Assembly (NCBI RefSeq): GCF_001681715.1
Contig: NZ_LNWY01000010.1
Coordinates: 1 to 64,000 of the forward strand
Length of the DNA stretch: 64,000 nucleotides
Direction of reading: 5' to 3'
From: Tritonibacter mobilis
Lineage (GTDB): Bacteria; Pseudomonadota; Alphaproteobacteria; Rhodobacterales; Rhodobacteraceae
Notes under the pieces: model-generated
Databases searched by the model: none
Told to the model about the DNA's origin: nothing
What the model saw: the letters and a program-made list of their open reading frames with translations, nothing else
Translations under genes and position numbers: made by a program
Shown here: one piece after another, positions 4,572 to 58,073 of the stretch
Layout of the letters: every line of letters begins with the position of its first letter
Numbering within the stretch: position 1 is the stretch's first letter

Positions 4572-4913
4572 TCAGGAACGCGGAGGGGGCGACTTCACTT
4601 CCAGTGTGCGACTCTCGGCGCTCTGCGCCACAAGCTTCTGAGCATTAAAAGCTGTCACAAGACCTAGCGCATAAGGCGTCGGTGGCGTTGTGGAAATAAT
4701 CGAACAGTGCGCCATCGAGCCAAAGCACGCAGTGTCATGACGCTCTTGCTGATCAGTAACCAGCGCAGCATGCCCTGAGTTATCTTCCGCGCAAATTTCC
4801 TGGAACGTTAGAGGCGAGTTCTCAACAGCAACAGACAGAGTTGGAGTGAGCGACAATACTAAAAGAGCGAGCGACAAGACGCAAATTATCTTGGTCATCC
4901 ATTCCAGCCGCAT
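4572..4913 (-). CDS. Small exported protein, unknown function
   Basis: The 113-residue product begins with a signal peptide or membrane anchor (ICVLSLALLVLSLTPTLSVA, residues 10-29). The remainder has two cysteines spaced C-x6-C (CFGSMAHC) and ends in SPPPRS. I do not recognise a named family. The protein at 17188-17559 has the same plan: an N-terminal hydrophobic helix, a C-x5-C pair, then about 45 residues ending in a PPR motif, so the two may be distant relatives. Both sit beside copper genes, which suggests a periplasmic metal-related role (inference). It lies about 190 bases upstream of copA on the same strand. GAAAGAGA precedes the ATG at 4913. Confidence 0.55.
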   Translation of the reverse strand: MRLEWMTKIICVLSLALLVLSLTPTLSVAVENSPLTFQEICAEDNSGHAALVTDQQERHDTACFGSMAHCSIISTTPPTPYALGLVTAFNAQKLVAQSAESRTLEVKSPPPRS

Positions 4914-4930
4914 AGGTCTCTTTCTTCAAT

Positions 4931-4962
4931 CTTCTGAACGATAGCTCTTCTGAACGATAGCT
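4931..4962. repeat. Perfect 16-base tandem duplication in an intergenic region
   Basis: CTTCTGAACGATAGCT occurs twice in direct tandem (4931-4946, 4947-4962). It lies just upstream of the small exported minus-strand gene, within the 369-base space 4914-5282 between divergent genes. I see no gene in that space; it should hold the promoters for both directions. Confidence 0.8.
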
Positions 4963-5282
4963 ATCGGTCGTGTTCGTCGGTGTAAACCTTACAAATTGAT
5001 ACATTTCAAACTGGCCTAGTAGTATTGATTTGTTTGGGATTTTTAGCTTTATCGACATGACGTGATCACGGCTCAAAGCCAAGCAAAGCACAGGATATCG
5101 AAGGTAAAAACGCCAGGGCCGTTCACACTGCCAACTTCAACAAAGCCGTCGGGCTCAACCCGATAGTCAGAGTGAAATCCTTCGGTGATTTTCAGCCAAA
5201 CTCCAAAGCTTGCCTGTTTTGAAATCAAGAAAGCCTGGACTCTAGCAACCGATCTTCCACATCACAAAGGAGTAAACAAAAC

Positions 5283-5625: not shown

Positions 5626-6888
5626 ATGAGTACGGCTCTGGAAATCGACGCGTTTACAATTTCTGGTCTTTTCGGCTGGACACATCATATTGCGGACCTG
5701 TTAGGATTCCACATCATTGAAAACCCTCCCCAGTGGCTGCATGTGGCGCTGCAGCTTATTCTAGTAATTGCGCCTCTCGCTACGCTATTAGGTTTCCTGA
5801 TATTCCTTGCTCAGATTATCAGAAGTATAGCTCAAAACAGGCTATTTTCTATTGAAGATCGTAGGGAGTTTGCTCTTGTTCGCCGCTTGATAGGGCTGCG
5901 CTGGCATGAACAGGTTACCGTTATATTTCTTGGTTTGTTAGCACAACCAGTACTGTATGCGACACTTGAGTTGCCAAAACGTATTGTCAACGGTGCGATC
6001 GAATCAAACCATTTCCCCATTGATGTTTTTGACTCTCAATACACACAACTAGAGTTTCTTGGACTCTTGTCTGTCTTGTATCTTATTTCCCTGATCGTGA
6101 GCGGCGCGATCAAGTACTGTATTAACGTCAGGAAGGGGGAGATCGGAGAGCGAACGCTTTTGCGGCTGCGCCTGGTGCTTTACCGGGCGTGGCGACGCGC
6201 ACCGGAAGGACAGCGCAGAACCGAAGTCATCCCACTATCGACGAGTGAAATTGAACCTATCGGCGGGTTTGCGGGAGATGTTCTGGCGACGCCTGTATTT
6301 CAAGGCGGCACCTTAGTCACTGTCCTGCTGTTCATGTTCATCCAAGACCCGATATTGGGAGCCGCAGCGATGACATTAGTACCTGTTCAACTGTTTATCA
6401 TACCCATTTTGCAAAGATGGGTAAACAAACGGATGAGACTCCGCATTCGCGCTGTTCGCGCATTCGGAGACGTTCTCGGGGAGCAAACCGGTGATGTATC
6501 CAGCCGATACATCACTCGCAAAACACTCTCAGCGGCCCACAAGCTTAGAAACACGAGACTTGAATTGCAGCGCGCGAAGTATTTGCAAAAGGCAATCAGT
6601 AATTTTCTAATGTCTTTGACGCCTTTTCTGCTTTACTCGATTGGGGGCTGGCTTGTTATTGAAGGCCGTTTGTCACTTGGCGCCTTGGTGGCAGTCATTG
6701 CGGCCTTCAAAGATTTTTCCAGTCCTTTCCGGGAACTCATTCTGTACTATCAGAATTCGTCCGATGTCAGGCTGCGAGCAAGGGAGTATGAGAGTTTCTT
6801 GCTGCAATGCGGAAGAGTAACCCACGGGCTGAACTTGAAGCAACGGTATAGTCGCCCACAATTCTTTGAAATCGAAGGAACCCCATGA
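5626..6888 (+). CDS. ABC transporter transmembrane-domain protein without ATP-binding domain
   Basis: This 420-residue membrane protein resembles the membrane half of exporter-type ABC proteins. There is a helix pair at about 40-70, further helices near 100-120, 140-165, 225-250 and 250-265, and a final pair near 330-370 (LTPFLLYSIGGWLVIEG and LSLGALVAVIAAFKDFSSP) that is characteristic of ABC membrane domains. The protein stops where an ABC exporter would continue into Walker A; no Walker A, signature motif or Walker B occurs here or in the next genes. Either it uses an ATPase encoded elsewhere, or it has another function. Its stop overlaps the next ATG (ATGA), so the two are translationally coupled. 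Confidence 0.7.
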   Translation: MSTALEIDAFTISGLFGWTHHIADLLGFHIIENPPQWLHVALQLILVIAPLATLLGFLIFLAQIIRSIAQNRLFSIEDRREFALVRRLIGLRWHEQVTVIFLGLLAQPVLYATLELPKRIVNGAIESNHFPIDVFDSQYTQLEFLGLLSVLYLISLIVSGAIKYCINVRKGEIGERTLLRLRLVLYRAWRRAPEGQRRTEVIPLSTSEIEPIGGFAGDVLATPVFQGGTLVTVLLFMFIQDPILGAAAMTLVPVQLFIIPILQRWVNKRMRLRIRAVRAFGDVLGEQTGDVSSRYITRKTLSAAHKLRNTRLELQRAKYLQKAISNFLMSLTPFLLYSIGGWLVIEGRLSLGALVAVIAAFKDFSSPFRELILYYQNSSDVRLRAREYESFLLQCGRVTHGLNLKQRYSRPQFFEIEGTP

Positions 6889-10416: not shown

Positions 10417-10638
10417 CCTTCATGAGCTTGTCAACCTTAAGGCACAGACATAGAGGAAGCGTCCTTCCGAGATCTATAAGACACTTCCCAAGGCTACAAC
10501 GATTAGAGACTCTGTGTATGGGCTTAGCGCGACTCTCTAGGGTCACAAGGCATCAACCAATCAATACCGAGAGACCAGCATCGGCAAACCGGTTTGAGTT
10601 CTTCATTTGGGAAAGCTTGCCACAACGTGGCTAAAACC

Positions 10639-11973
10639 ATGGAACATCAAAAAGCTAAAGGTTTATTGAAACAAGATCACTCGGCTATGCTGGCTCTTTG
10701 GCTTCTAGACCGAGCGCTGCACAAGTTGATCCGACGGGGGACGCTTCACGTTCATCTGCCGGACGGTGAAGTGCGGGCCTACGGCAGCGGGATGCCAATG
10801 ATTACCATTTCAATCCACGACTGGCCGACCTTGCGGCGGATTACGCTAAACCCCTACCTGGCCGTCGGAGAGGCGTGGATGGATGGCGCGCTCAGCGTGG
10901 AAACTGGAGATCTCTACAAGTTTCTTGCGCTTTGCCTGCGGAATGCCGACGAAGCTCCGATACATTGGTTGTGGCGGGCAAGCCATCGCATGCGCATGGC
11001 GATGAGACGGCTGGCGATGCACAACCCAATAAACCGGGCACGGCGTAACGTGGCACATCACTACGATCTGGGCGACGATCTCTATGACCTGTTCCTCGAT
11101 CCCGAGCGCCAGTACTCTTGCGCCTATTTCGAGAATTCTCGTGACAGCCTCGAGGGAGCACAGAAACACAAGATGCGGCACATCGCGGCAAAGCTGCAGA
11201 TAGAACCTGCGCAGAGAGTGCTGGATATCGGGTCAGGTTGGGGCGGGCTAGGAATGTATCTTGCGCGCACCTCGGGAGCGGATGTCACCGGTCTGACACT
11301 TTCCGCAGATCAACAAGCTCACGCCGCCGCGCGCGCCCTTCGCGAGGAACTCGCTGGCCGCGCCCGGTTCGAGTTGCGTGACTACCGCCACCAATCTGGC
11401 CGGTTTGACAGGATAGTGTCCGTCGGCATGTTCGAACATGTTGGCGCAGGACACTACAGAGAATACTTCGCCAAGCTTGCGGCACTGCTTGAAAAGGACG
11501 GTGTGGCACTGCTGCACACAATCGGCAGCAGTCGGGGGCCGCGCGCGCCTGATCCCTGGATCGCGAAATACATTTTTCCGGGGGGTTACATACCATCGCT
11601 TTCGGAGATTGTACCCGAGATCGAGCAGGCAGGCCTCGTTGTTACGGATATCGAAGTTCTCCGTCTGCACTATGCCGAAACGCTGAAAGCGTGGCGAGAG
11701 CGGTTTCTCGCGCGGCGAGACGAGGCGGCGTTGCTCTTTGACGAGCGCTTCTGCCGAATGTGGGAGTTTTATCTTGCGGCCTGCGAGGCCGGGTTCCGTC
11801 ACAACCGTCTCGTGGTGTTTCAGATTCAGCTCGCACACCGGCTGGACGCTGTGCCGACAACGCGCAACTATATTGAAGTAGCAAAAAGCAAGCTGCCGGA
11901 TCCGAGCAGCGAAACGAGTAGTGCGGAGAACAAACCTCATGCTCCCATTCACAAGGAAGTCGCCGCTGAATGA
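10639..11973 (+). CDS. cfa: Cyclopropane-fatty-acyl-phospholipid synthase
   Basis: The enzyme transfers a methylene from S-adenosylmethionine to double bonds of membrane phospholipid acyl chains. The 444-residue product shows the family order: an N-terminal lipid-binding part, the NVAHHYDLGDDLYDLFLD segment, the SAM site VLDIGSGWGGLGMYLA, YSCAYF, and IVSVGMFEHVG. The start is taken as ATG 10639 (MEHQKA); a TTG 45 bases upstream is in frame but has no better ribosome site. ATGA at 11970 couples it to the EamA transporter. Cyclopropanation hardens membranes against acid, oxidants and metals, which suits this island (inference). Confidence 0.92.
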   Translation: MEHQKAKGLLKQDHSAMLALWLLDRALHKLIRRGTLHVHLPDGEVRAYGSGMPMITISIHDWPTLRRITLNPYLAVGEAWMDGALSVETGDLYKFLALCLRNADEAPIHWLWRASHRMRMAMRRLAMHNPINRARRNVAHHYDLGDDLYDLFLDPERQYSCAYFENSRDSLEGAQKHKMRHIAAKLQIEPAQRVLDIGSGWGGLGMYLARTSGADVTGLTLSADQQAHAAARALREELAGRARFELRDYRHQSGRFDRIVSVGMFEHVGAGHYREYFAKLAALLEKDGVALLHTIGSSRGPRAPDPWIAKYIFPGGYIPSLSEIVPEIEQAGLVVTDIEVLRLHYAETLKAWRERFLARRDEAALLFDERFCRMWEFYLAACEAGFRHNRLVVFQIQLAHRLDAVPTTRNYIEVAKSKLPDPSSETSSAENKPHAPIHKEVAAE

Positions 11974-38835: not shown

Positions 38836-39915
38836 ATGAGCGTCGTCACCTACTTCGTGGAAACGGCTGAGGGCTATCTCAATACCGCTGCCGAGACGCA
38901 ATTTGGCGCGGTCGCCGCAACAGTCGGAACGATGCTCGTACTCGGCACCACACTGGTTGTCATTCTGGTTTTCATCAACGCGATCTACCAATACCGCGCC
39001 ATGGACGGGCGCACGGCCTTTTGGCTCGCCGTGAAGATCGGACTGATAGGCGCATTTGCAACCAACTGGGTGCAGTTCAACATCCTTGCTGCGGCGATCC
39101 TGAATGGGATCGACAGCATTGCCGGATCGCTCGTGGCCTCAGTCGGCGGCGGATCACCCGGCCCATCCGGCACCTTTGCAGAGGAGTTCGATGACCTGAT
39201 CGCGGCGCTCGGAGAGTATTTGAATGCTGCGGGCTCTGAACTGAATTGGATGGCCGGAGCCCTGTTGGACACCCTTGGGGTTTTGTTACTCTCGATCCTC
39301 GGCGGCTTAGCCGCGTTCATCGTGGTCGCGTCGCGGCTCATGATCGCTCTTCTGATCGGGATTGCGCCGGTCATGATCTTCCTGACACTGTTTGAAGTGA
39401 CCAAGGATTATTTCGCGCGCTGGCTTTCGGCGCTGATTTCCTTTGCGATGTACCCGATTGTCGTTGCCGGTGTGTTCGCAACGATCACGGGTGTCTCGCG
39501 CGCCCTACTTGCCGAGCTGGGCGACCCGGAAGGCGCCTCCAACATCGGCGCGCTCATCCCGTTCTTCATGATGGTGCTGATGGCAAAGGGGTTCATCATA
39601 GCAACGCCCTTCCTGGTTCGAGCAATTTCTGGAAACATCATGGTGCCGGCACTCTCGGCCGGCTTCGGCGGTAGCTATGCCTTTGCCCGAGGGCTCGCAG
39701 GCAGCCAACAAGTCTACAACCGGTACGCCATCGGAGGTGCGACTGGCGCGGAGTATGCAGCTCTGCGCGCGCGACAATTCTTTGGTGTGCAAGCGTTGCC
39801 AAGCCGACCCAATACTGCGGGAGGGCCTACGGCAGCTCCTCCCGGCGACGGGACCGGGACTGGCGCTCGGATGCTTGCGCAGCTTTCAAGGTTGGGTCGT
39901 CTAGGAAGACGGTGA
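38836..39915 (+). CDS. virB6: VirB6/TrbL-type polytopic channel protein
   Basis: The 359-residue protein has at least six helices (e.g. TMLVLGTTLVVILVFINAIYQY, LGVLLLSILGGLAAFIVVASRLMIALLIGIAPVMIFLTLF, ALISFAMYPIVVAGVFATI) and the VirB6 core DYFARWLSALISF. VirB6 forms the inner-membrane part of the DNA path. Its C-terminus is Gly/Pro-rich and soluble. It is the last vir gene of the operon. Confidence 0.9.
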   Translation: MSVVTYFVETAEGYLNTAAETQFGAVAATVGTMLVLGTTLVVILVFINAIYQYRAMDGRTAFWLAVKIGLIGAFATNWVQFNILAAAILNGIDSIAGSLVASVGGGSPGPSGTFAEEFDDLIAALGEYLNAAGSELNWMAGALLDTLGVLLLSILGGLAAFIVVASRLMIALLIGIAPVMIFLTLFEVTKDYFARWLSALISFAMYPIVVAGVFATITGVSRALLAELGDPEGASNIGALIPFFMMVLMAKGFIIATPFLVRAISGNIMVPALSAGFGGSYAFARGLAGSQQVYNRYAIGGATGAEYAALRARQFFGVQALPSRPNTAGGPTAAPPGDGTGTGARMLAQLSRLGRLGRR

Positions 39916-40088
39916 CGGCCCTTTGCAGACGTTGGCGCGACGATCTGATGCTACGTCGCGGCTTCACCACTGCGGACATTCGGGGTGCCTGCAGCAATCT
40001 TCCTGTCCGAGCTTGAAGCAGGCTTCGCGCGGATTGCGGGTTGGCGTCGCGCAGAGTAAAAAATTCCGAGCAACACCGGGAGGTATTT

Positions 40089-40772
40089 ATGGACCAGTCC
40101 GATCAGGAACTCGAGCGTCTCAGCGCGCGGTTGCATGCGCTGCCCATCGAGAACATGCCCATGACGCTCAGTGAACTTGATGGCTACGTAGTCGGTGTTC
40201 TTGCCTGCCCGGATATGATCCCGCCCTCGGAATGGATGTCCCATGTCTGGGGAGAGACAGGTGAGGCAAATTTTCCCGATCAGAAAACCGCCGAAGCCAC
40301 GGTCGGTGCGGTCATGGCTCACTACAACTCGGTTGCGGAGGCGATGACCCGCTCACCTTGGATCGAACCCATCTACGAGGTTGACCCCAACAGTGATGAG
40401 GTGATGTGGGAGCCTTGGATCGATGGCTTCACTCGCGCTATGGGGCTAAGACCGGATGCTTGGGATCGACTGCTCGCTCAGGCCGACGAAGAGACGCGGA
40501 CGACGATGATCTTCTTGATGGCGCTTCAGGAAATATACACTGGCCACAGCAAGTTCACGGATGAGGAGATCGACGAAATCGACCTTGAAGCACCCAATCT
40601 GATCCCAAACTGCGTTGCGACGATACTCTATCAGTCTCGTCCCGAGCTTTCCCGCATGGAGCCCGCAAATCGTTCCGAGATGCCGTTCAACGCCGGTCCC
40701 CGGCCCGGGCGGAACGACCCATGCTCCTGTGGGTCGGGCCGCAAATACAAGCAATGTTGCGGTCGGAACTGA
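40089..40772 (+). CDS. UPF0149/YecA-like protein with C-terminal SEC-C zinc motif
   Basis: The 227-residue product has the UPF0149 helical region ([28 protein letters not shown]) and ends in a SEC-C zinc-binding motif, [18 protein letters not shown], as at the SecA C-terminus. Such proteins bind zinc and often other proteins; the role here is unknown. GGGAGG lies 10 bases before ATG 40089, so that start is chosen over one at 40041. It sits between the virB operon and the reverse-transcriptase cassette. Confidence 0.85.
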
Positions 40773-40922
40773 CCGATCGCCCAAGTCTCTCACGGCCCAT
40801 ACCTGCCGTTCAACTTCGGTGGATCGAATGGCCGCTGTCAATTTTCAACAGTGTTCTGGCTCAGCCTTTATCTTGAAGTCCGAACTTGTTGGCAAACTGT
40901 CGCGATACTTGGTTGCAATTTG

Positions 40923-40939
40923 CACACTTTTGAAGTGTG
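40923..40939. promoter_or_regulatory. Inverted repeat at the start of the reverse-transcriptase cassette
   Basis: CACACTT-TTG-AAGTGTG forms perfect 7-base arms ending one base before the first possible start codon (TTG 40941). It could be an operator or an RNA hairpin. The space 40773-40940 otherwise shows no gene. Confidence 0.45.
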
Positions 40940-40940
40940 A

Positions 40941-42338
40941 TTGCCGTATTCGCCACTCATTTGGGCCATTGACTACGTGTTTGATCAATCGTTCTCACCT
41001 AAGAACCTAAGAAGAATTACGGAAATCGAAAATCGGCGAGGTTCGAACAAAAGCCTCGAATTCTTTCCTTCCGTTCTAGTTGCCACCGAAGAGCTAAAAG
41101 ATTGCATTAGGGCGACCAAACACTTCAGAGCCACTCACAAACACAAGTATTCGGTAGCTGACCAAGCGATTTTTGACGCACTCAAAGAAGATCGTGAAAA
41201 TGCTAGGAAAGCAAGGGATCAAGAGTTGCTTTCATGTTTAGCGAAAGTCTCGGATGAAATATCAAAGAAGAGCTTTAGGATTAGCATACGCAGGGTGGGA
41301 GGCCCCAGTGGAAAGCCTGTCTATGTCGTTCCTGAAACACCCGTAGATGCCTATGCGCAGAGCTACTATGCGATCAAACAAATCGCCAACAACATCTCCA
41401 GAATCTACAAGGTAAGGCAAGCGAATAGAAATCAAATTGTAACGCAACTGAGCGACTGTTTGAGTGACGGATTTCCGTACCACGTGGTCAAACTGGACGT
41501 GCAAGAGTTCTACGAGTCGGTTGACCACTCTGTTTTGCTCACCAAGCTGAAGTCTGATCAACTCCTAAGCGCAACGACAATGCGTCTGATCGAACGCCTT
41601 CTTTGGGACTATGCCGAGGTTGCAGGAACACCTGGACGGGGATTGCCACGTGGCGTAGGCCTTAGCGCCATCCTGTCAGAACTATACATGCGGGATTTTG
41701 ATGACCGCATATCGACACTCGAAGAAGTCGCTTTCTGTGCGCGCTATGTTGACGACATCATCGTACTTTTCGCCCCAACGAAAGGTTCCACAACTGACGA
41801 CTACCGAAAGGCTGTTGTCGAAGAACTTAGGCGCAAGAGGTTGGTCGTTAACGCCAGCAAATCTACACAAGCTCCTCCGGCTACTGAGCTGACGTACTTA
41901 GGCTACAAGTTCCGAAACGTGCGGAGCACTTCGTGTACGGTTCTGATGAGTGACGCAAAGTTTCAGAAATACAAGAAAAGGCTCGACGCGTGTTTCACGA
42001 GATACAATCGACAACGGGCGACGAAATCTAAGAAGGCATACAGGTTGCTCGTCAAACGTGTGCAGTACCTCACCGGAAACACGCAGCTAACGCATAGCAA
42101 ACAAAATGCCTTTGTGGGCATCTACTTCAGCAATCCACACCTGACAGACTTGTCACAACTTGAGAGACTAGACGATGCGCTCGCTACCCATATTCGCAAG
42201 CAAACACACAGTGCAAATCTAAGAGCCAAGCTTCAACAGTACTCATTTCAAAAAGGCTACTCTGAAAGAATATTCCGCCGGTTTCATCGGCAAGATGAAT
42301 TTGAAGAGATAACAAAGGCTTGGAAGTATGGTCAATAA
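40941..42338 (+). CDS. drt3a: Defence-associated reverse transcriptase, DRT3a-like
   Basis: The 465-residue protein has an RT palm: KLDVQEFYESVD (motif A, from about residue 182), GRGLPRGVGLSAILSELYMRDFD (motif B) and RYVDDIIVLF (motif C, catalytic Asp pair about 270-271), then LVVNASKSTQ (motif D) and TYLGYKF (motif E). No maturase or integrase domain follows, so it is not a group II intron or retron RT by layout. A second RT gene overlaps its 3' end, the arrangement of the two-RT anti-phage system DRT3. The start is uncertain: TTG 40941 abuts a hairpin and has no ribosome site; GTG 40977 (VFDQSFSPKNLRRI) is an alternative. Codon use is AT-richer than the vir genes, a sign of separate origin. 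Confidence 0.75.
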   Translation: MPYSPLIWAIDYVFDQSFSPKNLRRITEIENRRGSNKSLEFFPSVLVATEELKDCIRATKHFRATHKHKYSVADQAIFDALKEDRENARKARDQELLSCLAKVSDEISKKSFRISIRRVGGPSGKPVYVVPETPVDAYAQSYYAIKQIANNISRIYKVRQANRNQIVTQLSDCLSDGFPYHVVKLDVQEFYESVDHSVLLTKLKSDQLLSATTMRLIERLLWDYAEVAGTPGRGLPRGVGLSAILSELYMRDFDDRISTLEEVAFCARYVDDIIVLFAPTKGSTTDDYRKAVVEELRRKRLVVNASKSTQAPPATELTYLGYKFRNVRSTSCTVLMSDAKFQKYKKRLDACFTRYNRQRATKSKKAYRLLVKRVQYLTGNTQLTHSKQNAFVGIYFSNPHLTDLSQLERLDDALATHIRKQTHSANLRAKLQQYSFQKGYSERIFRRFHRQDEFEEITKAWKYGQ

Positions 42339-44460
42339 GCGCTCAATCCCGGCAAACTATAGCTACCACAGGCCCATACTCTCTGACGTTCATCCATTCG
42401 AAGTTCCACCGACTTTCAGCAACGGAGGGTTCTTCGACTTTGTTACTAGGTATGATGTGAGGCTAGAGCAAAATGGTCGAAAGACTTTCGTTGTATGGGA
42501 GTGCCCAAATGATCGATTGGACCAAGTCATCCATTTATTGTTCAAAACCTGCCGAAAGCACCCAGTGGCTTCGCCACCTTCGGGAAACGCTCGAAACTTC
42601 ATTGAGAACCCTACGCAGAGCAATATAGTCCGAGACGGGAAAACAAAACATATTAGAAAATGGAAGCTTTCGGACTATGCTATGCGCACGAAGCCTTATG
42701 GCTTTGATATCGCGCACAAGGAACGCGAGTTTCGTAGGCTATCCGTAATTCACCCAAGAAATCAGATAGCTGTTGCACATTTTTATCACTTGAACAGTGC
42801 CAGTATACTTTACCATGCTGGGCTAAGTGACCTTTCAATTAGGCATCCCGCGTCGGTAGCAAAAACAGTGAAATTTTCTGATCGTTTGTTCCAGGAACGC
42901 CAATCAAGAACCACCGACTCTGTTGAGCAAAGCTCAAAGGAATATGAAAACCTCGGTTCGTTTTTCTCCTACAGAAGCTACAGCAATATTTTCAAGTTTT
43001 TCGAGCACTACAAGTATCATAACGCTGAGAAAAAGTTCGATCTTTTGCTTCGATTAGACATATCAAAATGCTTCGATAGCATCTACACACATTCGCTGCC
43101 TTGGAGCACTTTGGGAACTGCCGCAGCTAAAGACTATATGGAGAAATCCAAAAAAACATTTGGCGGCAGATTTGATCGGCTCATGCAGGAAATGAACCAA
43201 GGTGAGACCAACGGCATCGTTATTGGCCCGGAGTTCTCACGGATCTTTGCTGAGATCATTTTGCAGTACGCTGACAGGAGCTTTCAGCAATCGATGGGCG
43301 ACGTCTATGGCTACAGGCACCGGGTGGACTATCAGGCTTTCCGGTACGTGGATGATTATTTCATATTTTGTACATCTCAAGTTGACCTGGGTCATGTTGA
43401 GAGACAGCTTGGGATCGCACTGAAAGAGCTGAAGCTAAGTGTCAACGCATCGAAATCAGCTGTCATACAAAAGCCGATTATCACAAAGCTCACGATTGCG
43501 AAGAACCGTGTTCGTGTTGTGCTCGGAGAGTGCATCGAAATCTATGAAAACGAAGTCGAGTACCCGAGTGGTACTGGGACGTTGGTGAAGAAATACACTC
43601 CGAGAGTTCGATCCAACAACCTGATAGTAGGTTTCAAGAGCATCCTTGATGAGACCGGCGTAGAGTACAAGGATATCTTAAACTACTCGTTTGCGGCACT
43701 AGAGAGAAACACCTCCACAATTTTCCGGAAAAACGAACAAACACTAGTGCCTCTGAGAGATGACCGAAAACTGACTCAAGCCCTCATTGGAATATTGGAG
43801 TTTTCGTTTTTCATTTACGCTGCCGACCCAAGAGTGAATATTTCGATACGCCTTGCCCGTTTGATTTCCATAATGGTCGATCAGATGAACGAATCTGGTA
43901 TTGGACGAGATTTTAAACACCAAGTCTTCAAGTACATTTTTGACAATGTCGCGCGGCAGCTTCGGCGAACCTCTACGAAAGGGCAGCCTAACATTGAGGT
44001 GATGTACTTAATTTTGGCGTTACGAAAACTTGGGAGGGAGTATCTCGTTTCTGAAGAAGCGCTGGCTGGATACTTCGGAATGGACAACAGCGGTCAAGGC
44101 AAAAATTACAAGGCAAGCTCTGAGACTGACTACTTCGCCGTCACTGTTGGTTTGAGCTATGCGACAGGAAAACGGAGGTATTCGAGGTTTCGTCAAGCTT
44201 TGGAAGAGGCGCTTGTAACCAGAGTCAAGAGCCGAGCAGCCTATGTTCACAACGAGTCGGAACCCTTGATGGCCTATCTTGATATCGCGTGCTGTCCCTT
44301 CGTTTCGGCTCGAACCAAGTATCGCCTCGCGCGGGTTTATGGGCATTCCGTCACAGATTTCCGCGCCATCAAATCTGCTTCGCCATTTTGGTTCACGGAT
44401 TGGAAGGGTTTTGACTTGTCCATCGCGCTGGACAAGAAACGCACGCGAGAAGTATACTGA
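42328..44460 (+). CDS. drt3b: Defence-associated reverse transcriptase, DRT3b-like
   Basis: The 710-residue protein has RT motif A LRLDISKCFDSIY (about residue 240), motif B QGETNGIVIGPEFSRIFAEIIL, and motif C FRYVDDYFIF (YVDD about 340-343), followed by LKLSVNASKSAVI (motif D). A long C-terminal part of about 330 residues has no domain I can name; it is helical and basic. Two consecutive RT genes of about 465 and 710 residues fit Drt3a/Drt3b. ATG 42328 overlaps the drt3a stop by 11 bases, with GGAAG before it, so both are made from one message. GC content is visibly lower than in the flanking transfer genes. Confidence 0.75.
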   Translation: MVNKRSIPANYSYHRPILSDVHPFEVPPTFSNGGFFDFVTRYDVRLEQNGRKTFVVWECPNDRLDQVIHLLFKTCRKHPVASPPSGNARNFIENPTQSNIVRDGKTKHIRKWKLSDYAMRTKPYGFDIAHKEREFRRLSVIHPRNQIAVAHFYHLNSASILYHAGLSDLSIRHPASVAKTVKFSDRLFQERQSRTTDSVEQSSKEYENLGSFFSYRSYSNIFKFFEHYKYHNAEKKFDLLLRLDISKCFDSIYTHSLPWSTLGTAAAKDYMEKSKKTFGGRFDRLMQEMNQGETNGIVIGPEFSRIFAEIILQYADRSFQQSMGDVYGYRHRVDYQAFRYVDDYFIFCTSQVDLGHVERQLGIALKELKLSVNASKSAVIQKPIITKLTIAKNRVRVVLGECIEIYENEVEYPSGTGTLVKKYTPRVRSNNLIVGFKSILDETGVEYKDILNYSFAALERNTSTIFRKNEQTLVPLRDDRKLTQALIGILEFSFFIYAADPRVNISIRLARLISIMVDQMNESGIGRDFKHQVFKYIFDNVARQLRRTSTKGQPNIEVMYLILALRKLGREYLVSEEALAGYFGMDNSGQGKNYKASSETDYFAVTVGLSYATGKRRYSRFRQALEEALVTRVKSRAAYVHNESEPLMAYLDIACCPFVSARTKYRLARVYGHSVTDFRAIKSASPFWFTDWKGFDLSIALDKKRTREVY

Positions 44461-44584
44461 AGGCAGAGCTTCGCCTAAACTAAATTGCTCAAGCTTTCGG
44501 GCTATGCGGGCACACACACAAGCTCCAAGACCAGGCGGCCTATAAACGGCACCGGTCACGCTGGCGGGGGGGCGGACCGCCAGC
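44461..44584 (+). ncRNA. Candidate DRT3 non-coding RNA with (CA)5 template-like tract
   Basis: The stretch between drt3b and the minus-strand virD4 gene holds no reading frame of note. It starts with a near-palindrome (AGGC...GCCT, 44461-44476), contains AGCTT (44492-44496) that can pair with AAGCT (44520-44524), and between them CACACACACA (44511-44520). It ends with a strong hairpin at 44560-44584. DRT3 systems use an ncRNA, and from memory of recent work an ACACAC segment of it templates GT-repeat DNA. Position, structure and the tract agree with this; identity is inference. Confidence 0.45.
44560..44584. terminator. Hairpin ending the reverse-transcriptase cassette
   Basis: GCTGGCGG (44560-44567) pairs perfectly with CCGCCAGC (44577-44584) around a G-rich 9-base loop. 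A weak pyrimidine stretch follows (TTATCCTCTT). It lies where the cassette transcript should end before the convergent virD4 gene. Confidence 0.55.
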
Positions 44585-44690
44585 TTATCCTCTTACGTTT
44601 ATCTTAGAAAGCTCTGAAAGCAGCCATTCGTTTATCCTGCAGCGAAAGACCGGTTCCCGCCCGCTCGACCGACATACCACCCTCGCCACC

Positions 44691-46709
44691 CTAACGAGCA
44701 ACCAGCTTTTGACCATCATCCTCTCGCAGCATCTCTTCCATTTCGTCCAAGCCATCAACGGCGGAGCGCATCTGCACCTCATCAACGACGCTCGCAGCCT
44801 CGGCATCCGCAACCTGGCTCCCAAAATCCATCTCCATCTGGCGCAGCTCCTCAGCGATCACAGCTTGAACGACAGGCGCGGTCTTTTTTGAAGCGACGTC
44901 GGTTTGCCCTGACGTTTGACTGCCAGCATCTTGGCGTGCGCTCTCTACAACCGCGTCAGTTTCAGACCCACTTGGTCCGTTCGCAGGCGGCGTCATCGGC
45001 ATGGCGCGCGCACTCAGCGGCAGCGTACCCTGCGACCCACCTCCCCCAGGCTTCGGAAACGGCAACTCGCCCGACTGCGCCGCATGGATCGCCTTGAACA
45101 GCCGATCGTCAAAATATTGAATCCGCTTCGCGCGGACCGGCATTTGCGCGTCAATGACCATGACGATCTCATCGAGCGGCAGACGGCGAGCCTCGTCTTC
45201 GGGGAGCAGCGAGCTTTCCTCGGTCCGTGTCGATTGGCTGCGGCCTTCGAAGGGGTTCTTGCCGATGGATTGCGAGCGCGTGACGACAGTCTTGGTGGTC
45301 TTGCCGACCGCCTTGCTCAGCTCCTCGACGGTTTTCTCATCGGAGGGCGTCAGGTAAAGCTTCACGCCGGCATTGCCTTGCAGAGCGCGGCGGGTGTTCT
45401 CGCCGTAGATTTCATCGAGGGCGGGGATGGTTTGTGTGACCACAGCCAAATGTCCGCGATAAGTCCGCAAGGTCTCGATGCTCTCGACCACGATGGGCAT
45501 CTTGCCCAAGCGATTGAACTCATCGAGCATGATCATTACCGGCCAAGGCTCGTCAGGTCCGGGGTCCTTTTCCTGCATGGCGGAGAGGAGATCGGAGAAG
45601 AAGAGCCGGATCAGCGGCGCGAGGGGCTTCACCATCAGCGGCTGGACCACGAGATAGACCGAGAAGGGTTTCTTGCGGATCGTCCGGAAATCAAAGTCCG
45701 ACACCGCCGTCGCTTCATCGATGGCCGGGTTCTGCCATTGGTCGAGCCCCGAGGTCATCAGGAGCGAGACGTAAGAGGTCAGCGTGTCGTTGTTGGTCGA
45801 GGCAAGCCGCGTGAAGATCAGTTTCGCGGCCCTGTTCTCCACCTCGTGGCCGCGCGCAAAATACTCCTTTTGCTTGTTCCCGCCCGACGCGGCGATGCGG
45901 TAGATCTCACCCAAGGTCGGGCGCTTGCGCTGGAAGGCCAGCAGCCCTGACGCCACGAAGAGATCGATCCCACCCTTGAGGAGGCCCTGCACCCGGTCAT
46001 TATCGCTTTGCAGGAAGAGCGTCGCCAGGAGCTGCAATTCCATCTGCTGGCGCGCGGGATCTTTCAGCTCGAAGATGCGTAGGAGCGGGTTGTAACGATG
46101 CGTGCGCTTGCCCTCCCAATCGGTGGGGGCAAAGCGATAGACATTGTCGCCTTGGGCAGCACGGTGGCGCGCCGTGGCCACAAAACACTCGCCCTTCACA
46201 TCGAGCGTCACGGCGGAGCCCTGCCAGGTCAGTAGGTTCGGAATGACGAAGCCCGTGGTCTTGCCGCGGCCCGTGGGGGCCACGATCAGCGCGTGCGGGA
46301 AGACTTTCGAGCAGATGTATTTCGCGCGGGAGCCGGGCGACCCAAGCTTTCCGAGAATGAACCCGGTGCCGGGCGCTCCGAAAAACCCGTTTGCCTTCAT
46401 CTCCCGCGCAGTCTGCCAATGGGTCTGCCCAAATTTTGTGAGGGCCGATCCCGAAAGAGCGAGGCTCAGCATCATACCAGCGGCGGCGAAGCTGCCGATG
46501 ATCAGGTGGATGAGTTGGGCATCCTCGGGGCGGCGATCGAGGATCGCCAGATAGTTCTGCGCGATATAGGCAAAGTCGATCTCCGCCCCGAAGCCAAGGT
46601 CCTGGTAGGTCAGCACCGCCGAGGCGATGGTATAGCCAATGGCGGCGGTCACCAGCGTCACCAGCAGGACGCCCGTGGCGATCCGCGCTTTTCCCATGGC
46701 GGCGCTCAA
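44691..46709 (-). CDS. virD4: VirD4/TraG-type coupling protein
   Basis: The coupling protein brings the relaxase-DNA complex to the channel. The 672-residue product has two N-terminal helices (about 10-34 and 68-90), Walker A VAPTGRGKTTG (about 143-153), Walker B VMIMLDEFNRLGK, and VVTQTIPALDEIYG with the TraG motifs. The C-terminal 130 residues are Pro/Ser-rich and acidic and may bind the relaxase. TTG 46709 overlaps the relaxase stop (TTGA); ATG 46697 is an in-frame alternative. Confidence 0.93.
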   Translation of the reverse strand: MSAAMGKARIATGVLLVTLVTAAIGYTIASAVLTYQDLGFGAEIDFAYIAQNYLAILDRRPEDAQLIHLIIGSFAAAGMMLSLALSGSALTKFGQTHWQTAREMKANGFFGAPGTGFILGKLGSPGSRAKYICSKVFPHALIVAPTGRGKTTGFVIPNLLTWQGSAVTLDVKGECFVATARHRAAQGDNVYRFAPTDWEGKRTHRYNPLLRIFELKDPARQQMELQLLATLFLQSDNDRVQGLLKGGIDLFVASGLLAFQRKRPTLGEIYRIAASGGNKQKEYFARGHEVENRAAKLIFTRLASTNNDTLTSYVSLLMTSGLDQWQNPAIDEATAVSDFDFRTIRKKPFSVYLVVQPLMVKPLAPLIRLFFSDLLSAMQEKDPGPDEPWPVMIMLDEFNRLGKMPIVVESIETLRTYRGHLAVVTQTIPALDEIYGENTRRALQGNAGVKLYLTPSDEKTVEELSKAVGKTTKTVVTRSQSIGKNPFEGRSQSTRTEESSLLPEDEARRLPLDEIVMVIDAQMPVRAKRIQYFDDRLFKAIHAAQSGELPFPKPGGGGSQGTLPLSARAMPMTPPANGPSGSETDAVVESARQDAGSQTSGQTDVASKKTAPVVQAVIAEELRQMEMDFGSQVADAEAASVVDEVQMRSAVDGLDEMEEMLREDDGQKLVAR

Positions 46710-52649: not shown

Positions 52650-53075
52650 TTACTTGCCGCTTAGCCACCGCCGGAAACGTTGCCAAAGACCTTGTGGCAC
52701 ATCCGCATTCGCCATTGATGCGGGGGCTTCCGGCGCATCGTAATACCGACCTTTGGCGCGACGGTCGTGCGCCCGTCCAGCGGCAATCTGTTCATCACTC
52801 ATATCACCTGCCCACCGGATATTGCTGTGCTTGATCCAGTAATGCGACCGGCAAGGAAAGCTCCAGTTCCCGATGGACGGCGAGAGCGAGATCGACACAC
52901 CGTCATAGCCCATCTTCCAGTCCGTCGGGCTTAAGGGCGTGACGACTTCCCTGCCACAGCCGCAGGCGCATTTGTGAACGGCCGTTGCGTAATCCATGGC
53001 GAGGTACAGAACGCCCTCCTCGGTCTGCTCGGGGATCGCATCTACAAATTTGTGGGTAATCTTCTTAATCGTCAT
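52650..53075 (-). CDS. DUF6527 family protein (Ubl operon)
   Basis: The 141-residue product has the family core: a Cys cluster C36-A-C-G-C40, SISLSPSIGNW (about 61-71) and PCRSHYWI with Cys75 and His78, likely a zinc site. DUF6527 proteins are encoded with bacterial ubiquitin-like pathways and have been proposed as peptidases that process the Ubl; this is from memory, not shown here. Its start overlaps the ThiF stop by 11 bases. A short basic tail (LWQRFRRWLSGK) follows. Confidence 0.8.
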   Translation of the reverse strand: MTIKKITHKFVDAIPEQTEEGVLYLAMDYATAVHKCACGCGREVVTPLSPTDWKMGYDGVSISLSPSIGNWSFPCRSHYWIKHSNIRWAGDMSDEQIAAGRAHDRRAKGRYYDAPEAPASMANADVPQGLWQRFRRWLSGK

Positions 53076-54249
53076 CGCGCCCGTCCATGTTGTTTATCGT
53101 GTTGCCATCAATCGTGTAGTTGCTGGAATGCTCGCCCTCAAAATCGGCGTAAAACCCTACAAGCTTCTTCCACCGGATCACCGCGAGCGTCGCGTTCAGG
53201 GCGTTCAGGTCAGCCACCTGGATGTTGGTGGCGTAAGCATCATCTACGTCCGCCTCGCCCATGCCGACGCGGCGACGAAGCGGCTCTCGCTGTTCGGCGG
53301 TGCTCAGCGTCACCCGCAGCACACCCACCAGGGCATCGTCGCCCATCTCGATCCCCATACCAACATCAATGAAGGGGGTGCCCTGTTCTTCGAGGTGTTC
53401 GACAGCCGGGCGTTTGGCGGCGCCGGAGTCAACGCACACAAAGACGAAATCCATCTCGTTCAGCAGGTCCACGTTGGATTCGTCGAGATAGACTGGATGC
53501 GGGACGATCCCTTTACGTATAGGCGCATAAAGCGCTGCGAAGTAATCGACCTTCTTGTTCCGTTCCCGCAGTGTTTCAATGCTGGGTGCGCCCGGGCTAC
53601 GGAACGCGTTGTGCTGCAGGAAATCATCACCGTCGATAAGATGCAGCTCGCGGATCGGCGTCTTAGCGAGCAGATCGAGCACATAAGAGCCTGTTCCGCC
53701 GAGGCCAACAATGGCGACCTTGTTCATCGCCAGCTTTTCGGAAAAACCGCCGATCCCGGCCCGTGTCGAGGCTGTGTCCTGGTAGTTGAATACCGGATCA
53801 GGTTCATCGGAGTCTGCGACGACGTAGGTGCGCGCATCAGCCGTCGGATCGATTTTCCGCGCGGGCGATGCGATCATCTCCACATAGGTGGTCATTTTGT
53901 GTTCGTAGTCGCGGTAGCCCTCTTTTGGCTTGGCCGAAAACATGTGGTCTACCGTGATGTCTTTGCCGAGGCTCTGGCGTTTGCTGGAGTGCCTGATGCC
54001 TTCGAGTGTCTTGCCATTGTGATCGCAAGGATGCTCGCCCACGAAGTACGCCTTATGGTCGCTCGGCGCCATCGTCTCGCCACCGTTCGTCTGCAGAACA
54101 GAAACGAGCGTGCCAAGCTTTACCTCGCGATTGGCGTTCACGTAGGGCACGTTGGAGATCACGAGGTGGCCACTTTTCACAGCCACCTCGTATCCGCCTT
54201 CTTCGAGGGCCTTGAGATCGGCGTTACGACTTATCAGTTGCCGTGACAT
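53065..54249 (-). CDS. DUF6791-ThiF fusion, E1-like adenylyltransferase
   Basis: The 394-residue protein has an N-terminal DUF6791-type domain (about 1-150, with FVGEHPCDHNGKTLEGI containing Cys75) and a ThiF/E1 domain (about 170-340): VAIVGLGGTGSYVLDLLA as ATP loop, LHLIDGDDFLQHNAFRSPGA with the conserved Asp/Asn/Arg, and FVFVCVDSGAAKRPAVEHL. E1 enzymes adenylate the C-terminus of a ubiquitin-like protein. ATG 54249 has GGAGGG 9 bases before it and lies inside the Ubl gene's 3' end, so the two are coupled. The N-terminal Cys could serve E2-like transfer (inference). Confidence 0.85.
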   Translation of the reverse strand: MSRQLISRNADLKALEEGGYEVAVKSGHLVISNVPYVNANREVKLGTLVSVLQTNGGETMAPSDHKAYFVGEHPCDHNGKTLEGIRHSSKRQSLGKDITVDHMFSAKPKEGYRDYEHKMTTYVEMIASPARKIDPTADARTYVVADSDEPDPVFNYQDTASTRAGIGGFSEKLAMNKVAIVGLGGTGSYVLDLLAKTPIRELHLIDGDDFLQHNAFRSPGAPSIETLRERNKKVDYFAALYAPIRKGIVPHPVYLDESNVDLLNEMDFVFVCVDSGAAKRPAVEHLEEQGTPFIDVGMGIEMGDDALVGVLRVTLSTAEQREPLRRRVGMGEADVDDAYATNIQVADLNALNATLAVIRWKKLVGFYADFEGEHSSNYTIDGNTINNMDGRDDD

Positions 54250-56257: not shown

Positions 56258-56848
56258 ATGAGCTATGAGAGCGAGAAACTGGCGGCGACACTGAAAGCTG
56301 CCCGCGAAAAGAAGGGGCTGAGCCAGCGCGCGCTGAGCGCCCATGCAGGCGTGCCGCAGTCGCATATCTCCAAGATCGAGAGCGGCGCTGTGAACCTCAC
56401 CGTCTCAAGTCTGACCGCCATCGCCAACGCCCTTGATCTGGAACTGGCGCTTGTTCCGCGCAAGGCCGCGCCTGCCGTAAGAACGATCACCCGTAGCGTA
56501 AACGACGTGCCGAAGGCCACGCCGGAGGCGCGTAAAGAGATTGCCCGGCTCGCCAAGCAGCTTGAGCACATCCAGTCGCTCAAGATCGATAGTCCCGTCT
56601 TCGAAAACCTGCAGCGGCAGTTTCGCGAGATGCGACAGTTCGAGAACCTGATCCGGAATACCGACACATTGCGCAGCATACGTGAAGCGCTCAAAGCCGT
56701 GGAGAACGCGGGTGGCGTTGCCGCGCTGCAGGAAGCGTCAAAGCAGATGAACAGTTTCCGCAACGCACTCGCCCATGGCATAGCCGATGAGGAACGGACG
56801 CGCTTGCCGCGTCCTGCCTATCGCCTTGATGGAGACAACGATGAGTAA
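56258..56848 (+). CDS. HipB-like antitoxin with long C-terminal extension
   Basis: The 196-residue protein begins with an HTH (LAATLKAAREKKGLSQRALSAHAGVPQSHISKIESG, about 6-42, then TAIANALDLELALVPR). The remaining 120 residues are helical (IARLAKQLEHIQSLK, FENLIRNTDTLRSIREALKAVENAGG) and absent from the 88-residue E. coli HipB. ATG 56258 is the likely start; ATG 56240 and TTG 56231 are also in frame. It overlaps hipA by 8 bases. Confidence 0.82.
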   Translation: MSYESEKLAATLKAAREKKGLSQRALSAHAGVPQSHISKIESGAVNLTVSSLTAIANALDLELALVPRKAAPAVRTITRSVNDVPKATPEARKEIARLAKQLEHIQSLKIDSPVFENLQRQFREMRQFENLIRNTDTLRSIREALKAVENAGGVAALQEASKQMNSFRNALAHGIADEERTRLPRPAYRLDGDNDE

Positions 56849-58073
56849 TGTCTCCGTGCTGAACGTAAACCTGTATGGCGAGCCCATTGGCACGCTCACC
56901 AATCTTGGCGGCGATCGCACCATCTTTGCCTTCACCGACGAGTACATCGAAAATCCTGACAGGCCGACCCTCGGGCTCGCCTTCAAGGATGAATTCGGGG
57001 AACTCTATACGGATTTTCGGCCCTATCAGAAGCGCGTCATGCCCTTCTTCTCAAACCTTCTTCCCGAAGGCCATCTGCGCAAATACCTGGCCGAACAGGC
57101 GGGCGTGAATCCCGAACGAGAATTCTATCTGCTTTGGGCGCTTGGCCATGACCTGCCCGGCGCGATCACGATCACCCCTGCTGACGGTGAAGCCTGGCCG
57201 CCGGATGCGGCCGATGGCGCCGATGATCATGGCGATGATCAGCGAGAGAATGCTTTGCGGTTTTCGCTGGCAGGCGTTCAGCTCAAGTTTTCCGCCGTGA
57301 TGGAAGCTAGTGGCGGGCTGACCATTCCCGCCTCTGGTGTCGGGGGCTCCTGGATCGTGAAGCTACCCTCGCGTGAATTCGCAGGCGTCCCTGAAAATGA
57401 ATTCTCGATGATGAAGCTGGCCGGCCTTATCGGGATGAACGTCCCTGCCATCGATCTGGTCAGTATCGATGCGATCAAGAACCTGCCCGAGGGTATCGAT
57501 AAGATCGGCAACCATGCCTTTGTGATCGAGCGGTTTGATCGCCTTTCCGACGGGTCGCGCGTGCATATCGAGGATTTTGCGCAGGTCTATGGGCTCTATC
57601 CCGAAGACAAATACGGCAATGGCACATTCCGCAACATCGCCCAGGTGATCGCCGCCGAAGGTAATGATGCCGACATCATCGAATATGTCCGGCGCCTGAC
57701 CTTCAACATGCTGATCGGCAATGCTGATATGCACATGAAGAACTGGTCACTGATCTATCCGGACAGGCGGTATGTCTCGCTGGCACCAGCTTATGATTTT
57801 GTGGCGACTGTGCCCTACATTCCGGGTGATGCGACCAACATGAAGATCAGCCGTGCCAAGGTGTTTTCGGCATTCTCGGTTGATGAGCTAGAACACCTTG
57901 CCGTCAAAGCATCGATCCCGAGGAAGATGGCGATCGACGCGGCCCAAGAGACGGTTCAGGCTTTTCGGGAGCATTGGGGCACAGAAGCGGCAAACCTGCC
58001 GATGAGTGATGAGGTCAGGTCTGCCGTTGAGGATCACATGAAGACAGTGCCCATCCTGGAAGAACTTTCATAG
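56841..58073 (+). CDS. HipA-like Ser/Thr kinase toxin
   Basis: The 410-residue protein matches HipA kinases: N-terminal HipA domain (NLYGEPIGTLTNLGGDRTIF), PFFSNLLPEGHLRKYLAEQAGV, DLPGAITI, FSLAGVQLKFS (ATP loop), GSWIVKLPSREFAGVPENEF, FVIERFDR, and the catalytic FNMLIGNADMHMKNWSL (about 289-305) with LAPAYDFVAT supplying the magnesium Asp. HipA stops growth by phosphorylating tRNA synthetases in E. coli. ATG 56841 lies in the antitoxin's 3' end. Confidence 0.92.
   Translation: MSNVSVLNVNLYGEPIGTLTNLGGDRTIFAFTDEYIENPDRPTLGLAFKDEFGELYTDFRPYQKRVMPFFSNLLPEGHLRKYLAEQAGVNPEREFYLLWALGHDLPGAITITPADGEAWPPDAADGADDHGDDQRENALRFSLAGVQLKFSAVMEASGGLTIPASGVGGSWIVKLPSREFAGVPENEFSMMKLAGLIGMNVPAIDLVSIDAIKNLPEGIDKIGNHAFVIERFDRLSDGSRVHIEDFAQVYGLYPEDKYGNGTFRNIAQVIAAEGNDADIIEYVRRLTFNMLIGNADMHMKNWSLIYPDRRYVSLAPAYDFVATVPYIPGDATNMKISRAKVFSAFSVDELEHLAVKASIPRKMAIDAAQETVQAFREHWGTEAANLPMSDEVRSAVEDHMKTVPILEELS

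What the first reader, a model, noticed from the sequence alone, without database searches (positions are those of the whole stretch)
44461..44584. Candidate non-coding RNA of the DRT3 system with a (CA)5 template tract
Directly downstream of the second reverse-transcriptase gene is a gene-free, structured stretch with CACACACACA (44511-44520) held between short complementary segments (44492-44496, 44520-44524) and ended by a strong hairpin (44560-44584). From memory, DRT3 uses an ncRNA whose ACACAC segment templates alternating GT DNA. This gives a precise, testable ncRNA location for a Rhodobacterales DRT3 homologue.
Basis: partly seen in the sequence, partly recalled or inferred. Interest (0 to 1): 0.85.

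Follow-up and report, generated by a model that had tools for sequence, protein, structure and literature searches.

The report
Template RNA of a DRT3 system
Just after two reverse-transcriptase genes lies the DNA for a small RNA that very probably serves as the CACACA template of a known bacterial anti-phage system (DRT3); its fold is conserved in related bacteria and differs from that of the two E. coli systems whose structures are solved.

Summary
The finding holds. 40941-42338 and 42328-44460 are Drt3a and Drt3b; the stretch after drt3b encodes the DRT3 template RNA, about 44465-44584. An alternating AC run of at least 6 nt lies within 260 nt of the drt3b stop in 113 of 113 distinct loci (controls 3/108, 5/113, 7/113). 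A covariance model from the window and ten relatives finds the RNA behind drt3b in 68 of 79 other compact-type sources, with strong covariation.

Additions: (1) a pseudoknot joins 44471-44476 to the last hairpin's loop (95.5% of 398 cells paired). (2) This RNA type marks one deep Drt3b branch; both E. coli systems with solved structures lie outside it, and the model finds 0 of 25 far-type loci. (3) A promoter-like signal sits in drt3b's last codons: TNGAC and TATAYT in 62 of 86 loci, 5.5 expected. No transcript was measured. DRT3 is published; this is a variant of a known kind.

The parts
40941..42338 (+). drt3a: RNA-templated RT; the ORF opens at TTG 40941, but by alignment with solved Drt3a the likely start is GTG 40977
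   Evidence: PADLOC Drt3a 1.7e-115; PDB 9z6y_A Drt3a 3.3e-21, with RYVDD aligned; GTG at 40977 read
42328..44460 (+). drt3b: RT of the protein-primed, protein-templated type; overlaps the drt3a ORF by 11 bases
   Evidence: PADLOC Drt3b 1.9e-180; PDB 26cz_A 1.3e-60 and 9z6y_H 1e-59; E25, R136, D244, F249, R305, YVDD 340-343 and Y710 conserved
44429..44434 (+). inferred -35 element TGGACA of an ncRNA promoter inside the last codons of drt3b (L701-D702-K703)
   Evidence: TNGAC at this place in 69 of 86 near loci, 30.1 expected
44453..44458 (+). inferred -10 element TATACT, made of the V709 and Y710 codons and the first base of the stop
   Evidence: TATAYT in 72 of 86 near loci, 17.2 expected; 0 of 27 far loci
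44465..44584 (+). DRT3 template ncRNA (predicted start 44465/44466, predicted 3' end at the last hairpin)
   Evidence: R1 match 44461-44585, 102.5 bits (by construction); loci outside the models' alignments found by R1 and R2; covariation
44466..44470 (+). P1 5' strand (GAGCT), pairs with 44521-44525
   Evidence: A3: 93.0% of cells paired, 3 of 5 pairs with changes on both sides
44471..44476 (+). pseudoknot 5' strand (TCGCCT), pairs with 44570-44575 in the P4 loop
   Evidence: RNAalifold found it unprompted; 95.5% of 398 cells, 6 of 6 pairs with double changes
44486..44512 (+). P2 (44486-44489 with 44509-44512) and its variable apical part (window: 44492-44495, UUCG, 44500-44503), directly 5' of the template: presumed 5' template boundary
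   Evidence: A3: 96.5% of cells paired, 4 of 4 pairs with double changes; apical hairpin seen directly, not counted across relatives
44513..44520 (+). template CACACACA, unpaired between P2 and P1
   Evidence: the same 8 columns of A3 read CACACACA in 57 of 67, TACACACA in 7, CACACACC in 2, CACACACT in 1; ACACAC in 67 of 67
44521..44525 (+). P1 3' strand (AGCTC)
44529..44557 (+). P3 hairpin, loop TATAAAC
   Evidence: A3: helices 3 and 4, 84.7% and 89.7% of cells paired, 10 of 10 pairs with double changes
44560..44584 (+). P4, 3'-terminal hairpin; its loop is the other half of the pseudoknot; followed by a T-run only in some relatives
   Evidence: A3: 87.2% of cells paired, 8 of 8 pairs with double changes; at least 4 T in the next 8 nt in 21 of 67

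Best explanation
44465-44584 encodes the template RNA of a DRT3 anti-phage system. The RNA presents CACACACA, unpaired, between stem P2 (5' side, presumed template boundary) and stem P1 (3' side). Drt3a copies it 3' to 5' into a few TG units, the product realigns by microhomology, and long poly(dTdG) results. Drt3b starts at its own C-terminal Tyr710 and adds alternating dC and dA under control of Glu25, Arg305 and Arg136 without a nucleic acid template. The two strands anneal to repeat duplex DNA that shuts down infected cells. Shown here: gene identity, conservation of place, tract and fold, the pseudoknot, conserved residues. Taken from published work on E. coli members: the two DNA products, priming, gating and abortive infection (realignment is a hypothesis there too). 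Inferred: that this copy is transcribed and active, that P2 is the boundary, and that a promoter inside the end of drt3b (TGGACA-N18-TATACT) starts the RNA at about 44465.
For: Gene identity. AC tract in 113 of 113 distinct loci, controls 3/108, 5/113, 7/113, shuffles 10.8%. Model R1 (window and ten relatives), run on 95 sources (window, 79 other compact-type, 15 far-type): 71 matches at E<=1, 69 at the drt3b 3' end and 2 elsewhere (E 0.16 and 0.64); that is 68 of the 79 (58 at E<=0.01; two pairs of exact copies counted in) and 0 of the 15. R2 detects 17 of 22 compact-type loci outside its alignment at E<=3.2e-5 (one is a copy and one a near-copy of a training row) and 0 of 25 far-type loci. 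Covariation: A2 86.9% of cells paired against 33.0-44.7% when slid; A3 89.5% with 431 double-change cells against 132 in shuffles; pseudoknot 95.5%. Published system with the same parts in the same order (PMC13174585). Gate and priming residues conserved. Promoter signal: V709 codon ranks first of 297 columns; both elements in 62 of 86 against 5.5 expected; in 30 of 47 representatives under 70% identity.
Against: No transcript, DNA product or defence was measured. Single-sequence folding of the window is not unusual and its minimum-energy structure lacks P1 and P2. RNAalifold, which allows no pseudoknots, returned the pseudoknot helix with P2 and P3 and left out P1 and P4. The promoter scan finds 5 sites in 40600-44800 with 3.9 expected. 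P1-P4 counts on A3 lean towards the model they were aligned with (the pseudoknot is not in that model, and A2 is a plain MAFFT alignment). R1 misses 11 of 79 compact-type sources; R2 still misses or scores weakly 5 of 22 (L008, L089, L091, L093, L097). Rfam has no match.
Confidence: 0.93

Rival explanations
1. The RNA is not made from its own promoter but is cut out of, or is simply the 3' end of, the drt3a-drt3b transcript. The biased codons at the end of drt3b would then serve RNA folding, processing or translation.
For: The predicted RNA starts 5 or 6 nt after the drt3b stop; there are no start-site data; other codons near the end are biased too, less strongly (K704, R705, E708). I did not test whether the tail of drt3b pairs with the RNA.
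Against: The two strongest biases of the tail outside serine columns (V709, D702) fall on a -10 and a -35 with an 18-nt spacer; P1 begins 8 or 9 nt after the -10 in 58 of 67 rows; of 27 far loci 0 have TATAYT and 1 has TNGAC (the 27 include L058 and L097, whose proteins or RNA are compact-type, and the one TNGAC is L058, read).
Confidence: 0.22
2. The stretch is only the transcription terminator of the drt3 operon, and the CA run is a chance microsatellite.
For: P4 is a strong GC hairpin; in some relatives it is followed by T-runs (at least 4 T of 8 in 21 of 67).
Against: 113 of 113 loci carry the tract; ACACAC is invariant in 67 of 67 aligned RNAs while the helices around it co-vary; the P4 loop is conserved as a pseudoknot partner; the window has no T-run after P4.
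Confidence: 0.02
3. A decayed DRT3 copy: the parts are there but the cassette is inactive.
For: Some relatives are broken (in-frame stop in L058, drt3b annotated in two pieces in CP083496, C-terminal frame change in L124).
Against: Both window ORFs are open with the listed catalytic, gate and priming residues, and every listed RNA pair forms in the window.
Confidence: 0.05

Closest known systems
EcoDRT3 of Wang et al. 2026 (PMC13174585; the paper names PDB 26CZ)
   Same: Drt3a, Drt3b, then ncRNA with ACACAC loop downstream of drt3b; same gate residues (Eco E22, R71, R241 = window E25, R136, R305) and priming Tyr at the C-terminus (Eco Y666 = window Y710); the mapping is mine.
   Different: L124, nearly identical to 26cz up to residue 646, lies outside the compact branch of the Drt3b tree, and R2 finds no RNA there. 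Their covariance model was built from subgroup 9 relatives (32 hits in the methods, 41 systems in the legend); in the main text 'pseudoknot' occurs 0 times and 'promoter' twice, both for pBAD (supplements not seen).
DRT3 in PDB 9z6y and 9z6z, which I take to be that of Deng et al. 2026 (Science)
   Same: Same proteins; L122 encodes a Drt3b that matches 9z6y_H over all 650 residues (1444 bits).
   Different: L122 also lies outside the compact branch; its tract is 123 nt after the stop. The paper is not held; I know it from passages of a review (PMC13314766). The link between paper and PDB entry is my inference.
DRT10 (PMC12632851)
   Same: Telomerase-like: template directly downstream of a stem-loop that is suggested to set its 5' boundary (passages), the position P2 has here.
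   Different: DRT10 needs a SLATT protein and has variable template sequences; here there is no SLATT neighbour among the genes examined and the template is invariant.

Membership tests
DRT3 | Drt3a-type RT | tested here: met
   PADLOC PDLC03768 1.7e-115
DRT3 | Drt3b-type RT directly downstream | tested here: met
   PDLC03784 1.9e-180; ORFs overlap by 11 bases
DRT3 | ncRNA downstream of drt3b with ACACAC in a loop | tested here: met
   44513-44520; (sequence and covariation; no transcript)
DRT3 | Drt3b gate residues (Eco E22, R71, R241) and catalytic YVDD | tested here: met
   window E25, R136, R305, Y340-D343; residue mapping made by me from the alignment
DRT3 | C-terminal priming tyrosine (Eco Y666) | tested here: met
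   window Y710; Y in 111 of 113 rows
DRT3 | fits the published (subgroup 9) ncRNA covariance model | not testable with these tools
   model not held; the reverse test, compact model R2 on far-type loci, found 0 of 25
DRT3 | makes poly(dTdG) and poly(dCdA); protects against phage | not testable with these tools
   needs experiments
DRT10 | SLATT partner gene, with the ncRNA upstream of it | tested here: not met
   Pfam scan of the neighbours: UPF0149/SEC-C upstream, T4SS coupling protein downstream; no SLATT-specific search was run

The most novel reading that the evidence does not exclude
DRT3 has two differently built template RNAs around the same ACACAC. The compact one, to which the window belongs and which I saw in Pseudomonadota, Bacteroidota, Verrucomicrobiota, Acidobacteriota and Margulisiibacteriota (organism labels of the records, several of them MAGs), is a pseudoknotted RNA of roughly 100-140 nt that marks one deep branch of Drt3b. 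Its promoter is written into the codons of the Drt3b C-terminus, so one short stretch of DNA encodes both the priming tyrosine of one polymerase and the start signal of the other polymerase's template.
Probability: 0.68. Interest if true: 0.62.

Novelty: new variant of a known kind. Interest (0 to 1): 0.5.

Why it matters
It gives testable boundaries, a covariation-supported fold and a predicted start site for the template RNA of a DRT3 branch that the two solved DRT3 systems do not represent. It shows the template and the protein gates staying fixed while the RNA scaffold differs between branches. The host carries the alphaproteobacterial AddA over its cut-off and no RecB over its cut-off, so the published restraint of DRT3 by RecBCD would here have to be done by something else, AddAB being the obvious candidate; that is directly testable.

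Tried and rejected
Single-strand energy folding as evidence: z-scores from -2.31 to +0.10 in 8 sequences, not decisive. Rfam: nothing. First viral scan with the window protein alone: no match. Phage records: 9 matches, none over 80% of Drt3b. A link between gate residues and template: of 113 rows E25 is E in 102, D in 3 (L009, L113, L123) and unread in 8, R305 is R in 108 and unread in 5, and all 113 have an AC tract, so there is next to no variation to correlate. UPF0149/SEC-C gene as a part of DRT3: no tblastn match in the held stretch of 112 other loci.

Of 207 plasmid records that matched I fetched 8. From the tree: L007, L048, L058, L105, L114, L115, L117, whose open frame is under 550 aa. 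A3 holds 56 of the 58 other sources with E<=0.01 (L014 and L016 left out) plus the 11 founders, so its 67 of 67 is not a detection rate. 'Near' and 'far' are defined by the start of the longest AC run (75 nt or less, or more), so the 27 far loci include L058 and L097, which are compact-type by RNA match or by tree. Sampling: the genome scan returned 80 of 276 relatives and was seeded with proteins of the compact branch, so compact/far proportions mean nothing.

Full report
What was checked. The finding places a DRT3 ncRNA at 44461-44584, after the second RT gene. The sequence is as described: CACACACACA at 44511-44520 and a strong hairpin at 44560-44584. The upstream ORFs 40941-42338 and 42328-44460 match PADLOC Drt3a (1.7e-115) and Drt3b (1.9e-180). 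They also match solved DRT3 proteins: 26cz_A and 9z6y_H for Drt3b at 1.3e-60 and 1e-59, 9z6y_A for Drt3a at 3.3e-21. Rfam gives nothing in the window.

What is known. In EcoDRT3 the ncRNA is encoded in cis downstream of drt3b; its 5'-ACACAC-3' loop templates poly(dTdG) by DRT3a, and DRT3b makes poly(dCdA) without a template, primed by Y666 and gated by E22 and R241 with R71 helping. Source: PMC13174585; I saw the abstract and outline, passages, parts 1 and 2 of 3 of the Results, the Discussion and part 1 of 2 of the figure legends. Deng et al. (Science 2026) and Mestre et al. (NAR 2022) are not held; the former was seen only through passages of a review (PMC13314766).

Relatives. I collected Drt3b loci from plasmids (8 of 207 matching records), genomes of the window's class, species genomes (80 of 276 relatives kept), viral contigs and E. 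coli. Reading the DNA after each stop codon, 113 of 113 distinct loci carry an alternating AC run of at least 6 within 260 nt. The same test gives 3 of 108 for a stretch 400 nt further on, 5 of 113 for the opposite strand and 7 of 113 for the last 260 nt of drt3b; dinucleotide shuffles give 10.8%. A Drt3a relative lies in 108 of the 112 other loci; in the 4 without (L023, L043, L072, L111) the held sequence begins inside drt3b or less than 80 nt before the match.

Two groups. In 86 of 113 loci the tract starts within 75 nt of the stop, in 27 further away. On a Drt3b tree of 106 rows all 84 near-type rows fall on one branch of 85 rows (SH-aLRT 100), with one far-type row inside it, L097 (quick method, midpoint root, several long branches). 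The window sits there with Aliiroseovarius and Roseobacter. L122, whose Drt3b matches 9z6y_H over its full 650 residues, and L124, nearly identical to 26cz up to residue 646, sit outside that branch.

The fold. The window and ten near relatives were aligned by MAFFT (A2). RNAalifold on A2 returned, unprompted, a helix between the segment after P1 and the loop of the last hairpin; since it allows no pseudoknots it left out P1 and P4. With P1, P2, P3, P4 and this pseudoknot, 86.9% of 358 cells pair, against 33.0-44.7% when slid by 1-3 columns, and 20 of 33 pairs show changes on both sides against 12.1 in shuffles. A model of the nested part (R1) was run on 95 sources: the window, 79 other compact-type and 15 far-type. 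Of 71 matches at E<=1, 69 lie at the drt3b 3' end (one is the window itself; L068 is shifted 40 nt upstream) and 2 elsewhere (E 0.16 and 0.64). That is 68 of 79 compact-type sources, 58 of them at E<=0.01, copies counted, and 0 of 15 far-type. In the host genome R1 has one match, the window (150 of 956 first-look candidates scored). On the 67-row alignment A3 (rows chosen by score) 89.5% of 1767 cells pair and 25 of 27 pairs have double changes. The pseudoknot, which is not in the model, pairs in 95.5% of 398 cells, with double changes in 6 of 6 pairs, against 39.3-57.4% when slid. R2, built from A3, finds the RNA in 17 of 22 compact-type loci outside A3 at E<=3.2e-5 (L014 is a copy and L067 a near-copy of training rows), weakly or not at all in L008, L089, L091, L093 and L097, and in 0 of 25 far-type loci.

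Anatomy in the window (all pairs read directly). P1 44466-44470/44521-44525. Pseudoknot 44471-44476/44570-44575. P2 44486-44489/44509-44512, with a UUCG-capped hairpin inside. Template 44513-44520. P3 44529-44557. P4 44560-44584. The 8 nt between P2 and P1 read CACACACA in 57 of 67 rows; ACACAC is invariant in 67 of 67. So the (CA)5 of the window need not be a longer template: its first CA is the 3' side of P2. P2 directly abuts the template on the side towards which reverse transcription runs, the place of the stem-loop upstream of the template in DRT10 (PMC12632851, passages) and of the stem-loop next to the template in EcoDRT3. That P2 is a boundary here is inference. The minimum-energy structure of the window alone has P3 and P4 but not P1 or P2.

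A promoter inside drt3b. A consensus scan put TGGACA-18-TATACT over the last codons of drt3b, as one of 5 sites where 3.9 are expected by chance. Relatives decide: the valine codon before the terminal tyrosine is GTA in 73 of 86 genes, 17.3 expected from each gene's own usage. In a scan of 297 aligned codon columns of 84 genes it is the most deviant column; D702 (GAC 67 of 71) ranks sixth, behind three serine columns, whose two codon blocks cannot interconvert by one change, and one column just upstream of the drt3b start, inside drt3a; L701 ranks ninth. TATAYT ending on the first base of the stop occurs in 72 of 86 (17.2 expected by synonymous resampling), TNGAC at the -35 in 69 (30.1), both in 62 (5.5); among the 27 far loci 0 and 1, the one being L058. 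With one gene per 70% identity cluster, 37 of 47 have TATAYT and 30 both; at 50%, 16 and 12 of 19. P1 begins 8 or 9 nt after the -10 in 58 of 67 rows, and the base 7 nt after the -10 is a purine in 57 of 67. The simplest reading is a sigma-70-type promoter that starts the RNA at or next to the first base of P1; RNA processing or another constraint on the codons is not excluded.

Function. E25, R136, D244, F249, R305, the YVDD box and Y710 of the window match the residues reported for EcoDRT3b. Over 113 rows R305 is R in 108 and unread in 5; E25 is E in 102, D in 3 and unread in 8; R136 is R in 104, N in 1 and unread in 8; Y710 is Y in 111, unread in L058 and M in L124, both broken copies; the last D of YVDD is N in L017. 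The window copy therefore has what the published mechanism needs. Whether it is expressed and protects is untested. The host has alphaproteobacterial AddA over its cut-off (1285.8 bits, cut-off 860.75) and no RecB over its cut-off (best 187.1, cut-off 696.05), whereas RecBCD restrains EcoDRT3.

Setting. The cassette sits between an ORF at 38836-39915, whose counterparts in three aligned plasmids are annotated 'type IV secretion system protein' (VirB6-like by recall; no NCBIfam match), and the coupling-protein gene 44691-46709 on the minus strand. Plasmids of other Rhodobacterales align on both sides and carry other cargo here: CBASS in L140, a metallohydrolase with ThiF in L141, a mercury operon in L142.

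In print. Searches for DRT3, Drt3a/b or UG RTs with ncRNA, pseudoknot or promoter gave no paper in which I saw the compact RNA, its pseudoknot or the embedded promoter described. I opened only PMC13174585 (parts named above) and passages of PMC13314766 and PMC12632851; the other papers were seen as listings.

Noticed in passing
window 39922-44683: Cargo hot-spot between a T4SS gene and the coupling-protein gene of Rhodobacterales MPF_T/MOBP plasmids: DRT3 here, CBASS in L140, metallohydrolase plus ThiF in L141, mer operon in L142. 164 plasmid records match part of the 9-kb query; three were read.
   Followed up: partly
window 40041-40772: UPF0149/SEC-C gene in the same cargo interval, matching PADLOC candidate PDC-S12 at 3.4e-32; no tblastn match in the held stretch of 112 other DRT3 loci.
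   Followed up: partly
L125 (NZ_CP125731.1) and L007: E. coli also carries the compact DRT3 type: 9 of 5,426 genomes hold at least 80% of the query; R2 finds the RNA in L125 and L007 at 2.9e-5. The plasmid copy CP083496.1 has drt3b annotated as two pieces.
   Followed up: partly
L058 6170-6172; L124 about 4908-5009: Broken drt3b copies: in-frame stop close to the C-terminus in Pseudooceanicola L058; the L124 protein departs from 26cz after residue 646 and lacks the terminal tyrosine in frame. Described only.
   Followed up: no
L097 (Flavobacterium) 6161-6420: Compact-branch Drt3b, but the AC tract is 130 nt after the stop and the compact model scores poorly (E 0.23): a possible third RNA arrangement.
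   Followed up: no
L017 drt3b: The last D of the YVDD box is N in this far-type copy, which still has the AC tract.
   Followed up: no
window 53065-54249 (-): ThiF/E1-like protein: NF004805 at 556 bits (cut-off 352), weak similarity to E1-E2 defence models; beside a 141-aa ORF (52650-53075) without a PADLOC match.
   Followed up: no
window 56787-58073: HipA-like ORF with the HipA N-terminal domain TIGR03071 over its cut-off.
   Followed up: no
window 2499-4385 (-): CopA-type multicopper oxidase, TIGR01480, 681 bits over the 479 cut-off.
   Followed up: no
window 10594-11973: Partial match to PADLOC mad2 (1e-17, residues 190-354), not examined.
   Followed up: no
G000 C45:261161-264445: Host has alphaproteobacterial AddA over the cut-off and no RecB over the cut-off, of interest because RecBCD restrains EcoDRT3.
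   Followed up: partly
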